NCBI RefSeq assembly: GCF_029763755.1
Contig: NZ_JARUVM010000005.1
Span: 1-42,189 of the forward strand
DNA: 42,189 nucleotides
Direction: 5' to 3'
DNA from: Luteimonas sp. 8-5
GTDB lineage: Bacteria > Pseudomonadota > Gammaproteobacteria > Xanthomonadales > Xanthomonadaceae
The notes under the pieces: model-generated
The model's database searches: none
What the model was told of the DNA's origin: nothing
Seen by the model: the letters and a program-made list of their open reading frames with translations, nothing else
Translations under genes and position numbers: made by a program
Shown here: positions 4,095 through 7,712 of the stretch, piece after piece
How the letters are laid out: each line of letters starts with the position of its first letter
Numbering within the stretch: position 1 is the stretch's first letter

Positions 4095-4117
4095 GTCGCG
4101 GCTTCCGCCGCTCCTAC
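4095..4117 (-). repeat. REP-like palindromic repeat, single copy
   Basis: Read on the minus strand, the element begins with GTAGGAGCGGCGG and continues AAGCCGCGAC. Its head GTAG contains the TAG stop codon of corA (bases 4114-4116). It matches the copies at 6258, 6585 and 7298 and lies between the convergent lipoprotein and corA genes. Confidence 0.8.
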
Positions 4118-5190: not shown

Positions 5191-6261
5191 ATGCCGCCCA
5201 GCCCCGACAAGCACACGGCCGCCGCAGCCGCCGCGGCCGACGCCGGATTGCGCCATGTCAGCGACGCCGCGCCGGGCATCCGGCGCCAGCGCCGCGGCCG
5301 CGGTTTCGGCTACGTCGATGCGAATGGACACAAGGTCACCGACACCGCGGTGCTGCAACGCATCCGCGCGCTCGCCGTGCCGCCGGCCTGGACCGGCGTG
5401 TGGATCTGCGCCGATCCGCGCGGCCACATCCAGGCCACCGGCCGCGACGCGCGCGGCCGCAAGCAGTACCGCTACCACGCGCGCTGGAGCGAGGTGCGCG
5501 GCGAGGGCAAGTTCGACCGCATCGTCGCGTTCGGCCAGGCATTGCCGAAGCTGCGCCGGCGCCTGCGCGCCGACCTGGCGCGCCCGGGCTTTCCGCGCGA
5601 GAAGGTGATGGCGATGGTGGTGGCGGTCATGGGCGAGACCCTGGTCCGGGTCGGCAACGCCGAATACGCACGCGACAACCGTTCCTTCGGCCTGACCACG
5701 CTGCGAAACCGCCATGTCGAGTTCCTGCGTGGCGGCCGCGCCCGTTTCCGCTTCCGCGGCAAGGGTGGGCAGGAGCACGACATCGTCCTGGACGACGCGC
5801 GCCTGGTGCGGTTGCTGCGGCGTTGCCAGCAACTTCCGGGGCAGGCGCTGTTCCAGTATCGCGACGACGACGGCGAGCTGGCCGCGGTCGAGTCCGGCGA
5901 GGTCAATGCCTACCTGCACGACACCACGGGCAGCGAGTTCAGTGCGAAGGACTTCCGCACATGGGGCGGGACGCTGGCTGCGTTCCAGCGCCTGGCCCGC
6001 ACCAGCCTGCCGGTCACGGCGAGAGGCGAACCGGCGGGCGAGCGCGCGCTGGCCGCCGTGGAGAACGCCATCGTGCGCGAGGTCGCCAGCGCGCTGGGCA
6101 ACACGCCGACGGTGTGCCGCAAGGCCTACATCGACCCGGTCGTGTTCGCCGGCTGGCGCGACGGCCGCGTGCAGCGCGCGGCAGCGAGTTGCCGTGGCGA
6201 ACGGCAATGGGAGGCGGCGGCGTTGCGGTTCCTGCGGAAGGCGCATCGGGCCCCGTCGTAG
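5191..6261 (+). CDS. DNA topoisomerase IB, poxvirus type
   Basis: The 356-residue protein is a bacterial type IB topoisomerase, which relaxes supercoils by a 3'-phosphotyrosyl nick without ATP. The N-terminal domain has GFGYVDANG and IRALAVPPAWTGVWIC, and the catalytic part has GRKQYRYH, TLRNRHVEF, KDFRTWGG and the tyrosine motif RKAYIDP with the active Y313. The length is normal for the family. Such enzymes are accessory to the essential type IA and II topoisomerases. The start ATG at 5191 is followed by an alanine-rich stretch. The stop TAG is the TAG of a REP-like GTAG head. Confidence 0.93.
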   Translation: MPPSPDKHTAAAAAAADAGLRHVSDAAPGIRRQRRGRGFGYVDANGHKVTDTAVLQRIRALAVPPAWTGVWICADPRGHIQATGRDARGRKQYRYHARWSEVRGEGKFDRIVAFGQALPKLRRRLRADLARPGFPREKVMAMVVAVMGETLVRVGNAEYARDNRSFGLTTLRNRHVEFLRGGRARFRFRGKGGQEHDIVLDDARLVRLLRRCQQLPGQALFQYRDDDGELAAVESGEVNAYLHDTTGSEFSAKDFRTWGGTLAAFQRLARTSLPVTARGEPAGERALAAVENAIVREVASALGNTPTVCRKAYIDPVVFAGWRDGRVQRAAASCRGERQWEAAALRFLRKAHRAPS

Positions 6262-6307
6262 GAGCGGCGGAAGCCGCGATCGCGCTCGCGGCTCACGCCG
6301 CTCCTAC
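6258..6307. repeat. Inverted pair of REP-like repeats
   Basis: The first copy (6258-6279) begins GTAGGAGCGGCGGAAGC and the second (6286-6307) is in opposite orientation and ends CGCCGCTCCTAC. The outer 12 bases pair perfectly and the inner CGCGA/TCGCG pairs again, so the whole can fold into one long hairpin. It begins inside the topIB stop codon. It may act as a transcription terminator as well as a repeat element. Confidence 0.85.
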
Positions 6308-6350: not shown

Positions 6351-6584
6351 ATGGCTACCTGCGACGTCTGCGGCAACGATTACGACAAGGCTTTCACCAT
6401 CTCCGGTCCGCTGGGCGCCGGCACCTACGATTCGTTCGAATGCGCGATCCATGCACTGGCGCCGACCTGCAGCCACTGCAACTGCCGCATCATCGGCCAT
6501 GGCGTGGAGAGCGACGGCGTCTTCTATTGCTGCGCGCACTGCGCGAAGCATTCCGGGGTGAAGGGCGTCGACGATCGGGCTTGA
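6351..6584 (+). CDS. Cysteine-rich metallothionein-like small protein
   Basis: The 77-residue protein has nine cysteines (residues 4, 7, 31, 40, 43, 45, 60, 61 and 64), arranged as CDVC, C, CSHCNC and CCAHC, with several histidines. This pattern strongly suggests zinc binding. Homologues with the block FDSFECAIHALAPTC are, as I remember, annotated as prokaryotic metallothionein, but the fold more resembles paired zinc ribbons. The start at 6351 is preceded by AAGGA (6339-6343). A TTG 27 bases upstream is possible. It stands alone between a REP pair and another REP copy, convergent with the barstar gene. It could store or sense zinc. No function is shown. Confidence 0.78.
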   Translation: MATCDVCGNDYDKAFTISGPLGAGTYDSFECAIHALAPTCSHCNCRIIGHGVESDGVFYCCAHCAKHSGVKGVDDRA

Positions 6585-6607
6585 GTCGCGGCTGCCGCCG
6601 CTCCCAC
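6585..6607 (-). repeat. REP-like repeat, variant copy
   Basis: On the minus strand this reads GTGGGAGCGGCGGCAGCC and on, one of the dispersed palindromes, with GTGG in place of GTAG. It lies directly after the stop of the cysteine-rich gene and just before the end of the barstar gene, between convergent genes. Confidence 0.7.
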
Positions 6608-6611
6608 GGGG

Positions 6612-7025
6612 TCACATTTCGGGCAACAGGGCCCAGAAGGGCTTCTGCGCTTCGGCCCAGGCCTGCGAAGCTTCCTCGATGATCTCCAGCAAGGTGTCGA
6701 ACGATTCCGGCTCCGCCTCGCGCCAGGCGTCCGGATGCTCGATCAGTACCAGGTAGCCCGCCGCCGGCCACCACGACATGTCCGCCAGGCAATCGGCCAG
6801 CGCATCCCAGTTGCGCCCGAACCATGACGGGAACTTCAGCGCGGCGCCGATGCGCTCGAGCGCTTCGTCCCGCTCGCTGCAACCGGCGAGGTTGACGGTG
6901 ACGGCGGCGAAGTCCAGTGCCATCGCCGCGGCGAGGAACTCCGAGGCGCCGGCGGCCGCGACCACGGACACGCCGGCCAGGGACGGGTCTGCCAGCACCG
7001 AACGCAGTTCGACCGATTCGTTCAT
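6612..7025 (-). CDS. Barstar-family ribonuclease inhibitor
   Basis: This 137-residue protein is a barstar homologue: the motif FPSWFGRNWDALADCLAD (about residues 65-82) is the barnase-binding helix and loop of the family, with the acidic residues that plug the RNase active site. It has no signal peptide and should stay in the cytosol. The gene starts with an ATGA overlap at the end of the secreted RNase gene, so enzyme and inhibitor are translated from one message with the inhibitor second. This is the arrangement expected for self-protection against a leaked or unexported RNase. The protein is longer than the 90-residue B. amyloliquefaciens barstar because of N-terminal and C-terminal extensions. 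Confidence 0.9.
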   Translation of the reverse strand: MNESVELRSVLADPSLAGVSVVAAAGASEFLAAAMALDFAAVTVNLAGCSERDEALERIGAALKFPSWFGRNWDALADCLADMSWWPAAGYLVLIEHPDAWREAEPESFDTLLEIIEEASQAWAEAQKPFWALLPEM

Positions 7026-7381
7026 TGCGGATCGAACCTGCGGAAGCTGCGGTAGTGGTCGTCTGTGTAGAAGTATTCGACCGGCGGATCGCCGCCGGCG
7101 ACGATGCGGCGTGCACCCCGGTCCGGGGAGCCCGGCGTCTCGACGGTGTACTCGCGGTAATAGCCGCGCGGTTGCGGCGGCAACAGGCGCTCGCGGTTGT
7201 GGAAGGTGCTGCCGTCCTGGCGATGGGCGAAAGGTCCACCGGCTTCGATGCGGCGCAGGGTCTCGTGTGCTTCCGGCGGGAGGAAAGCGGGCAAGTCGTG
7301 GGAGCGGCGGAAGCCGCGATCGGCAACGGCCCAGGCGAGCGCCATCGCCAGCAGTGCCAGCACGATCACACCTCGACGCAT
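7022..7381 (-). CDS. Secreted guanyl-specific ribonuclease, RNase Sa/barnase family
   Basis: The 119-residue protein has a signal or anchor segment (residues 4-20, GVIVLALLAMALAWAVA) and a catalytic domain from about residue 30 that follows Streptomyces RNase Sa closely: LPPEA, GPF, DGSTFHNRE, GYYREYTVETPG, DRGARRIV and DDHYRSF. Expected catalytic residues are E77, R88, R92 and H109. The enzyme should cleave RNA after guanosine, in the periplasm or outside. Residues 21-28 (DRGFRRSH) are encoded by a REP-like repeat, which makes the linker after the signal segment. The cognate barstar gene overlaps its stop codon by ATGA. No cysteine pair like that of RNase Sa is present. Confidence 0.9.
   Translation of the reverse strand: MRRGVIVLALLAMALAWAVADRGFRRSHDLPAFLPPEAHETLRRIEAGGPFAHRQDGSTFHNRERLLPPQPRGYYREYTVETPGSPDRGARRIVAGGDPPVEYFYTDDHYRSFRRFDPQ
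7298..7319 (+). repeat. REP-like repeat inside the RNase coding sequence
   Basis: The sequence GTGGGAGCGGCGGAAGC followed by CGCGA differs from the copy at 6258 by one base. It lies within the RNase gene and is translated on the minus strand as residues 21-28, between signal segment and catalytic domain. Confidence 0.75.
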
Positions 7382-7418: not shown

Positions 7419-7712
7419 TTATCCGCAGCTGATGCCCACGATCGCGTCGCGTTCGTTGAGCTTGATGTTCACGCGGTCGCCGCGATAGTCCATGGTCACC
7501 GGCTGGCCCGGGCGGATCACGCGCACCGACTGGCTGCCGGTCTCGACCCGGATGCGCTCGACGATGTCGTCGCTCACGGCGTGGCCCATCGCCCAGCTCG
7601 CGGCTTCGGCATTGCAGGACTCCGCCAGCGGCGGCGGCCCCGGCGGCGGCATGGTGGCGCAGGCCGCGAGCGGCAACGCGATCAGCAGGATGGCGGGAAG
7701 TCGCATGGCCAT
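7419..7712 (-). CDS. Peptidase inhibitor I78 family lipoprotein
   Basis: The 97-residue protein begins with a lipoprotein signal (lipobox LAAC, C18) and a proline-rich spacer. The rest fits the I78 inhibitor family: WAMGHAVSDDIVERIR, SQSVRVIRPGQPVTMDYR, RVNIKLNERDAIVGISCG. Family members are small serine-protease inhibitors of the potato-inhibitor-like fold. Here the protein would sit on a membrane facing the periplasm. Two cysteines remain in the mature part (in ESCNAE and ISCG) and may pair. The start at 7712 was chosen because AGGAG precedes it by 7 bases. A longer frame exists upstream without such support. It is followed on the same strand by the RNase and barstar genes. Confidence 0.85.
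   Translation of the reverse strand: MAMRLPAILLIALPLAACATMPPPGPPPLAESCNAEAASWAMGHAVSDDIVERIRVETGSQSVRVIRPGQPVTMDYRGDRVNIKLNERDAIVGISCG

What the first reader, a model, noticed from the sequence alone, without database searches (positions are those of the whole stretch)
6612..7381. Translationally coupled RNase Sa-like enzyme and barstar
A secreted guanyl-specific RNase with intact catalytic residues (E77, R88, R92, H109) overlaps its inhibitor gene by ATGA. Such pairs are best known from Gram-positive bacteria. Here a Gram-negative chromosome carries one next to a cysteine-rich zinc protein and a protease-inhibitor lipoprotein. The pair could serve in competition with other cells or in nucleic-acid scavenging.
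Basis: partly seen in the sequence, partly recalled or inferred. Interest (0 to 1): 0.6.

Follow-up and report, generated by a model that had tools for sequence, protein, structure and literature searches.

The report
RNase with its barstar inhibitor gene
This bacterium carries a guanine-cutting RNase gene overlapping the gene for its barstar inhibitor; the pair is ordinary for this bacterial order, but most relatives' enzymes look tethered to the cell membrane rather than released.

Summary
Minus-strand genes at 7022-7381 (RNase Sa-type, PF00545) and 6612-7025 (barstar, PF01337) overlap by ATGA, and the catalytic residues are intact. The "unusual for a Gram-negative" reading is not supported. 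The RNase is in 285 of 395 sampled genomes of this family, and all 285 also have a barstar. 184 of 196 fetched loci show the same 4-base overlap. Zhang et al. [quoted passage not shown] Five of six residues that touch in the solved RNase Sa-barstar complex are nearly invariant, and both predicted folds match.

What I had not expected is the enzyme's front end. In this order most RNases begin with a tryptophan-ended hydrophobic helix like that of the membrane anchor FtsB, then a long Pro/Ala-rich linker, and lack the two cysteines of most relatives outside the order. I read this as a periplasmic RNase held on the inner membrane, with barstar guarding the cytoplasm. This is inferred. The window's copy is atypical: a REP element (94 genome copies) encodes part of a short linker, and a possible signal-peptidase site appears. 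Its role is untested.

The parts
7022..7381 (-). RNase Sa-type guanyl-specific ribonuclease, 119 aa (P0001); catalytic E77, R88, R92, H109
   Evidence: PF00545 75.9 bits; RNase Sa3 E 5e-28; AF2 model pLDDT 90.4 matches RNase Sa2/Sa3, TM by target about 0.8; catalytic set 108 of 108
7319..7372 (-). N-terminal hydrophobic helix, about residues 4-21: signal anchor or signal peptide; possible signal-peptidase site AVA before D21
   Evidence: AF2 helix 3-22; feature comparison with TolB and FtsB controls
7298..7319 (+). REP-like palindromic repeat core inside the RNase gene; read on the minus strand it encodes about residues 21-28 (DRGFRRSH) of the linker
   Evidence: 94 matches of the 22-base core pattern in the assembly, 0 for the reversed control pattern; copy in window
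6612..7025 (-). Barstar, 137 aa (P0002); D74 and D78 correspond to barstar D35 and D39; N-terminal extension of about 39 aa before the Pfam domain
   Evidence: PF01337 104.3 bits over residues 40-134; AF2 pLDDT 95.8; Foldseek barstar 1bgs_E TM by target 0.81, rank 3 by E-value
7022..7025 (-). ATGA overlap: barstar start and RNase stop
   Evidence: same arrangement (ATGA 157, GTGA 27) in 184 of 196 loci
6586..6607 (-). REP-like core between barstar and the Cys-rich ORF
7419..7706 (-). Neighbour: I78-family peptidase-inhibitor lipoprotein (start codon uncertain by a few codons); same strand and upstream of the RNase in 26 of 85 loci within the flanks held
   Evidence: PF11720 57.2 bits; synteny
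6351..6584 (+). Neighbour: Cys-rich 77-aa ORF, found near the pair in 12 of 85 loci
   Evidence: no Pfam match; synteny
5191..6261 (+). Neighbour: DNA topoisomerase IB, near the pair in 9 of 85 loci
   Evidence: PF01028 99.8 bits; synteny

Best explanation
This is a chromosomal RNase Sa/barstar self-protection pair, inherited mostly vertically in Lysobacterales. The RNase is made with an N-terminal hydrophobic helix that sends it across the inner membrane; its catalytic domain then works outside the cytoplasm. Barstar has no export signal that I can see and is translated in step from the overlapping start. It stays in the cytoplasm and plugs the active site of any RNase that fails to leave, chiefly through D74 and D78 (barstar D35 and D39) against Y110/R63 and R88/Q55. 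In most of the order the helix looks uncleaved, so the enzyme would be held on the periplasmic face by a Pro/Ala-rich tether. Its most likely use is degrading RNA that enters the envelope, that is, nutrient and phosphate salvage. Shown by computation: both families, the folds, the catalytic and contact residues, the overlap and the co-occurrence. Inferred: binding, export, tethering in relatives, and salvage as the use.
For: Families and folds. Catalytic set invariant in 108 of 108. Residues that touch in the RNase Sa-barstar complex 1AY7 according to PMC2231411 (passages) map onto conserved ones: barstar D35 = D74 in 106 of 106; D39 = D78 in 105 of 106; RNase Y86 = Y110 in 108 of 108; R65 = R88 in 108 of 108; Q32 = Q55 in 106 of 108; R40 = R63 in only 77 of 108. 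All 285 RNase-bearing genomes of 395 have a barstar and none has the RNase alone. The two fetched loci of the order without an adjacent barstar, L049 and L070, have one elsewhere in the genome. Of 24 further loci (23 fetched, plus L097), the only two without a barstar match nearby (L204, L206) are also the only two that have lost the catalytic Glu and His; they are close sisters, so one event. Overlap kept in 184 of 196 loci. The strongest inter-protein covariation among 6,192 column pairs in 180 protein pairs is D87-W68, next to catalytic R88 and at the place of barstar Tyr29 by my alignment; 1 of 200 within-cluster shuffles reached its value. Mostly one copy per genome, no phage match. For barnase itself, expression without barstar kills the cell (PMC8625414, passage).
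Against: No activity or binding was measured. The covariation is weak as a whole-matrix test: the largest value of any pair in the shuffles reached 0.263, above the observed 0.223. The window's protein has an AVA site just before D21, so its own copy may be cleaved and released. The REP-derived linker could be a step towards decay, although the frame and active site are intact. Three of nine sampled genomes of the genus lack the RNase, so it is dispensable. By E-value the barstar model's first two Foldseek rows are MuB and KaiC, barstar third. Salvage is a default reading with no direct support.
Confidence: 0.75

Rival explanations
1. An interbacterial competition toxin with its immunity protein: the RNase is released and kills neighbours, and barstar protects kin.
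For: Barstar is the specific immunity family of barnase-type toxin domains in polymorphic toxin systems (PMC3482391, passages). The inhibitor is more divergent from the window protein than the enzyme is: 28-56% against 52-68% identity.
Against: No delivery module or repeat domain was found: the protein is a helix, a linker and the RNase domain. Mostly one copy per genome, in 285 of 395 genomes of the family, with shared neighbours in part of the loci, unlike variable toxin cassettes. In the order the enzyme looks membrane-held. No phage copy, and only 16 of 72,556 plasmid records hold a relative.
Confidence: 0.15
2. A freely secreted extracellular RNase with a cleaved signal peptide, as in Bacillus and Streptomyces, used for RNA in the environment.
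For: The window's copy has a strict AVA-D site after the core. Under the same script 41 of 108 order relatives have some permitted site and 18 a strict one, so cleavage cannot be excluded for them either. Sa-type relatives outside the order mostly have signal-peptide-like or lipoprotein-like starts: 21 of 23 with a permitted site (11 strict), 4 with a lipobox, the sets overlapping.
Against: For the order: Trp near the core end in 97 of 108, like the anchor FtsB (25 of 28) and unlike TolB (2 of 29); strict sites 18 of 108 against 25 of 29 in TolB and 0 of 28 in FtsB, ten of the 18 lying directly before a Trp; long Pro-rich linker (median 43 against 26 outside).
Confidence: 0.35
3. An intracellular toxin-antitoxin module for stress or phage defence.
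For: Toxin and inhibitor genes overlap and co-occur.
Against: The toxin carries an export or anchor helix, and the gene order is toxin first. Family-wide, mostly single-copy distribution; no other domain was found in the barstar.
Confidence: 0.05

Closest known systems
RNase Sa family of Streptomyces (RNase Sa, Sa2, Sa3; PF00545)
   Same: Domain fold and catalytic set; 60-61% identity to Sa3 over 84-85 columns (E 5e-28).
   Different: No cysteines in the window protein (178 of 179 relatives in the order have none in the domain; 20 of 23 outside have two). N-terminal helix with a tryptophan-ended core and long linker in the order.
Barnase-barstar of Bacillus amyloliquefaciens
   Same: RNase plus PF01337 inhibitor; the D35 and D39 equivalents are conserved; barstar fold matches at TM about 0.8 by target.
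   Different: Barnase itself is a distant match (TM by query 0.45, by target 0.50, to 1bnf_B). The barstar here has an extra N-terminal helix-strand-helix of about 39 residues. That the Bacillus genes lie apart is recalled.
Simple barnase-barstar pairs and Tox-Barnase/Imm-Barstar (Zhang et al. 2012, PMC3482391)
   Same: Toxin-then-immunity gene order; proteobacteria listed among the holders; [quoted passage not shown]
   Different: The passages I read do not mention membrane anchoring or Lysobacterales; the whole text was not read.
   Same: Same catalytic domain, intact in 21 of these 23 rows (not L204 and L206). A barstar match on the same strand in 20 of the 22 unnamed loci; none in L204 and L206.
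   Different: Signal-peptide-like or lipoprotein-like starts, usually two cysteines, shorter linkers. The barstar domain usually begins farther downstream of the RNase stop (11 to 239 bases; typically 26 in the order).

Membership tests
PF00545 / RNase Sa-type guanyl RNase | Profile match over the curated cut-off | tested here: met
   75.9 bits against 24
PF00545 / RNase Sa-type guanyl RNase | Catalytic Glu, two Arg, His (Sa E54, R65, R69, H85) | tested here: met
   E77, R88, R92, H109, invariant in 108 of 108; the Sa numbers and the roles of E54, R69 and H85 are recalled
PF00545 / RNase Sa-type guanyl RNase | Fold | tested here: met
   Model against 1pyl, 1mgw and 1mgr, rmsd 1.3-1.6, TM by target 0.78-0.82
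PF00545 / RNase Sa-type guanyl RNase | Disulphide of Streptomyces RNase Sa (recalled) | tested here: not met
   No Cys in the window protein; 178 of 179 relatives in the order have none in the domain. Not a defining feature of PF00545.
PF00545 / RNase Sa-type guanyl RNase | Guanyl-specific RNA cleavage | not testable with these tools
   needs an assay
PF01337 barstar | Profile match over the curated cut-off | tested here: met
   104.3 bits against 23.4
PF01337 barstar | DxxxD inhibitory motif (D35, D39) | tested here: met
   D74 in 106 of 106, D78 in 105 of 106
PF01337 barstar | Fold | tested here: met
   1bgs_E TM by target 0.81, rmsd 2.2, rank 3 by E-value; the first two rows are MuB and KaiC with TM by target 0.34 and 0.13
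PF01337 barstar | Tight binding to the cognate RNase | not testable with these tools
   only indirect: contact-residue conservation and weak covariation
Polymorphic toxin (Tox-Barnase with Imm-Barstar) | Trafficking domain or repeats N-terminal to the toxin | tested here: not met
   119-aa protein with only a helix, linker and RNase domain
N-terminally anchored inner-membrane protein | Hydrophobic helix without a signal-peptidase site | tested here: inconclusive
   Order: Trp marker like FtsB in 97 of 108. The site rules were crude: a site was found in 105 of 108 relatives and also in 23 of 28 FtsB. In one search a permitted site was found in 41 of 108 relatives, 26 of 29 TolB and 3 of 28 FtsB; a strict one in 18 of 108, 25 of 29 and 0 of 28. 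The window's own copy has a strict site.

The most novel reading that the evidence does not exclude
In Lysobacterales a secreted, cysteine-bearing guanyl RNase was turned into a cysteine-free enzyme tethered to the periplasmic face of the inner membrane by an uncleaved helix and a Pro/Ala-rich spacer, kept with barstar as a near-core function. It would be a standing RNA-degrading layer in the envelope. In the window's species, a REP element has since rewritten the tether and may have returned the enzyme to a released form.
Probability: 0.45. Interest if true: 0.5.

Novelty: new member of a known kind. Interest (0 to 1): 0.3.

Why it matters
The pair itself adds a member to a textbook system. 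The useful part is the survey: in 395 sampled genomes of the family the RNase is found in 285 (72%) and never without a barstar, and the order's enzymes have a front end that looks like a membrane tether. If true, this gives a simple question to test: what does a near-core periplasmic RNase do for these soil and plant bacteria?

Tried and rejected
Gram-positive curiosity or recent foreign gene: rejected. Presence in most of the family, a tree in which order members lie apart from most outside rows (split 87/93, below the strong-support mark; one outside row, L196, falls inside on a very long branch), shared neighbours in part of the loci, and window GC like its surroundings.

Mobile cassette: no phage match; 16 of 72,556 plasmid records, best 60% identity, 13 of the 16 in Caballeronia, Paraburkholderia, Citrobacter, Enterobacter, Escherichia or Salmonella.

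RNase without inhibitor: L049 and L070 looked like cases, but both genomes hold a barstar elsewhere. L054, L093 and L112 keep an intact barstar reading frame a little further on. Whether the three genus-mates without the RNase have an empty site was not examined.

Signal-peptidase rule: the first version was useless, finding 'sites' inside hydrophobic cores in 105 of 108 relatives and 23 of 28 anchor controls. I kept the Trp-at-core-end marker from that same script and made a stricter rule. Under the slightly different core definition the Trp marker was weaker: 72 of 108 order members, 17 of 28 FtsB, 2 of 29 TolB, 1 of 23 outside Sa-type, 2 of 5 outside barnase-type. The marker was chosen after looking at the sequences, and orthologues are not independent observations. 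Two FtsB controls (L160, L177) and one TolB control (L144) dropped out because no frame or start was found. The outside set (28) holds L184-L211 without L199, plus L097; three long multi-domain rows (L212-L214) were left out. Start codons were chosen by a script that favours a hydrophobic start, which leans towards finding such helices.

'Order' in my counts includes six rows that are MAGs named only to phylum or class (L061, L078, L102, L103, L109, L110).

Covariation: the interface set used for the enrichment count (2 of the top 10 against 0.12 expected) was drawn from memory after the first run had shown the top pair, so it is not blind. Several high pairs (R119, R111 and R63 with distant barstar positions) look like lineage effects.

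Complex prediction: the tool folds one chain, so the complex was not modelled.

Literature: the searches barnase+barstar+Gram-negative+Xanthomonas, barstar+proteobacteria+ribonuclease+secreted+homologs, barstar+Gram-negative (25 of 35 listed), RNase Sa+barstar, Xanthomonas+extracellular ribonuclease+type II secretion (none), Lysobacter+ribonuclease+extracellular+RNase, barnase/barstar/transmembrane/periplasm/RNase Sa (15 of 18 listed) and Xanthomonas+barstar listed no paper that by its title and abstract start is about this pair in Lysobacterales. Passages of three papers were read: PMC3482391, PMC8625414, PMC2231411. Only open-licence papers are held.

Full report
1. The observation. The window is contig C139 of a 2,506,271-base, 193-contig assembly (99.56% complete). 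On the minus strand, 7381-7022 encodes a 119-aa protein and 7025-6612 a 137-aa protein; the four bases ATGA at 7025-7022 hold the start of the second and the stop of the first. The first matches PF00545 (75.9 bits) and the second PF01337 (104.3 bits); neither family has another match in the assembly. The closest solved sequence for the RNase is RNase Sa3 (E 5e-28), followed by RNase Sa and Sa2; all 19 hits were of this kind. Against solved sequences the barstar gives only weak barstar hits (best E 0.06), but its predicted structure (pLDDT 95.8) matches solved barstars with TM about 0.8 by target length. By E-value the first two rows there are MuB and KaiC, and other ATPase folds are interspersed, with TM by target 0.13-0.42. 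The RNase model (pLDDT 90.4) matches RNase Sa2, Sa3 and Sa at rmsd 1.2-1.6 in the top rows.

2. How common it is. In 395 sampled genomes of the family, PF00545 is found in 285 and PF01337 in 300. Comparing the two lists by script: 285 have both, 0 the RNase alone, 15 barstar alone, 95 neither (the Fisher test there ignores kinship). In the phylum sample 35 of 398 genomes have PF00545, eight of them in this order (seven in the family, the window's own included). Of nine sampled genomes of the window's own genus, six have the RNase and three do not (G002, G132, G184; G184 is 76% complete). So the pair is normal for this family and scattered in the rest of the phylum sample.

3. The overlap. I examined 196 loci: the window, 80 named genome contigs (the best 80 of at least 392 relatives), 30 loci (its best-scoring), five genus-mates and 80 further stretches that I picked from the matches listed to spread over genera. 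They are not a random sample, and adjacency was not checked in all 285 genomes. Some are the same genome twice, for example L041 and L114; 180 distinct protein pairs remain. 157 have ATGA and 27 GTGA with the barstar frame starting there: 184 of 196. Ten have another arrangement and two have no barstar in the locus. Those two, Frateuria defendens (L049) and Fulvimonas soli (L070), have a barstar elsewhere in the genome.

4. Residues. E77, R88, R92 and H109 are invariant in 108 distinct relatives. PMC2231411 (passages) lists contacts shared by the solved RNase Sa-barstar complex 1AY7: barstar D35 with Y86 and R40, and D39 with R65 and Q32 of RNase Sa. Through the and 14 alignments these are D74-Y110/R63 and D78-R88/Q55. 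They are conserved in 106 of 106 (D74), 108 of 108 (Y110), 77 of 108 (R63; 29 have Tyr), 105 of 106 (D78), 108 of 108 (R88) and 106 of 108 (Q55). Among 24 Sa-type loci of which 23 come from the phylum sample, the catalytic set is intact in 22; the two exceptions, L204 and L206 (Glu to Ala and His to Tyr), are also the only two with no barstar match nearby. They are close sisters and their genomes each have a second, intact RNase gene with a barstar match (L197, L198). So one lineage in which the enzyme copy died has no inhibitor beside it, as the self-protection reading predicts. Among 6,192 inter-protein column pairs in 180 protein pairs of the order, mutual information with average-product correction is highest for D87-W68; W68 stands at barstar Tyr29 by my alignment. 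Shuffling barstars within 38 similarity clusters reached that value in 1 of 200 runs, but the largest value of any pair in those runs (0.263) exceeded the observed 0.223. I take it as mild support for contact, no more.

5. The front end. Most order members start with a short basic stretch, a hydrophobic core ending in tryptophan and a polar or charged residue (for example LLGLWLWSQR), and then a Pro/Ala-rich stretch. Controls from the same family of bacteria: TolB with a cleaved signal (29 usable of 30) and FtsB with an uncleaved anchor (28 of 30); that TolB is cleaved and FtsB is not is established knowledge, not tested here. Trp near the core end: FtsB 25 of 28, order RNases 97 of 108, RNases outside the family 3 of 28, TolB 2 of 29. 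With a different core definition the ranking is similar but the values are lower (17 of 28, 72 of 108, 1 of 23 Sa-type, 2 of 29). Signal-peptidase sites under the rule: permitted 41 of 108, strict 18 of 108 in the order; 26 and 25 of 29 in TolB; 3 and 0 of 28 in FtsB; 21 and 11 of 23 outside Sa-type, four of which also have a lipobox. With the larger set: Trp in 161 of 179 in the order against 1 of 23 outside; linker median 43 against 26 residues; Pro 16.5% against 7.4% (Ala is alike, 20.9% and 19.4%); cysteines in the domain: none in 178 of 179 against two in 20 of 23. These are orthologues, so the counts are not independent. The pattern suggests one change near the base of the order. L196, an outside row with a Trp-ended helix, also falls inside the order's part of the tree, though on a very long branch.

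6. The window's own copy. It keeps MRR and a Trp at position 17, but the linker is 19 residues, third shortest of 180 (one of the shorter two, L246, is cut by a contig end). About eight residues of it (21-28) are read from a REP-like repeat whose 22-base core occurs 94 times in the assembly against 0 for the reversed control pattern. None of the five genus-mates shows that stretch. AVA stands directly before D21, a possible signal-peptidase site. I cannot tell whether this copy is released, tethered or on the way out; the frame and active site are intact.

7. Neighbourhood. In 85 loci (L033-L117, two genomes counted twice) the I78 inhibitor lies nearby in 26, the Cys-rich ORF in 12, topoisomerase IB in 9 and CorA in 3; flanks are at most about 5 kb and some contigs are short. 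In the five genus-mates the counts are 4, 3, 4 and 3. The locus is thus an old chromosomal neighbourhood in part of the family. I see no functional link between the neighbours and the pair.

8. Verdict. The finding is real and correctly described, but ordinary for its lineage. The mechanism is most likely the well-known one: exported guanyl RNase, cytoplasmic barstar, translational coupling. The only point that might interest a specialist is the apparent order-wide change from a secreted, cysteine-bearing enzyme to a cysteine-free, membrane-tethered one, which is inferred and can be tested simply.

Noticed in passing
window 4096-4117, 6258-6279, 6286-6307, 6586-6607, 7298-7319: All five exact REP cores of this 42-kb contig lie within 3.3 kb around the pair; two form a facing pair at 6258-6307. 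94 cores in the assembly.
   Followed up: partly
window 7298-7319: A REP core serves as protein-coding sequence, the linker of an exported enzyme. Whether other REP cores in this genome are coding could not be told from 20 sampled stretches because of the high GC.
   Followed up: partly
   Followed up: partly
L198 and L097: Catalytically intact RNase Sa-type enzymes with lipoprotein-like signals outside the order: perhaps another way of tethering the same enzyme.
   Followed up: no
L049 (Frateuria defendens) and L070 (Fulvimonas soli), downstream of the RNase: Barstar is missing next to the RNase, and a reading frame that looks to me like an S4-domain protein follows (not searched); a barstar lies elsewhere in each genome.
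   Followed up: partly
genomes G219, G243, G275, G295, G342, G369, G373, G385, G393 (genus g28): Weaker barstar matches (E 8e-11 to 3e-6) without any PF00545 RNase match: perhaps a divergent, stand-alone barstar-like protein.
   Followed up: no
window 6351-6584: 77-aa Cys-rich ORF with CxxC pairs, no Pfam match, 74-80% identical in 12 loci beside the same pair.
   Followed up: no
window 6612-7025 (residues 1-39 of barstar): N-terminal extension with helix-strand-helix, confidently modelled; solved barstars have about 90 residues.
   Followed up: no
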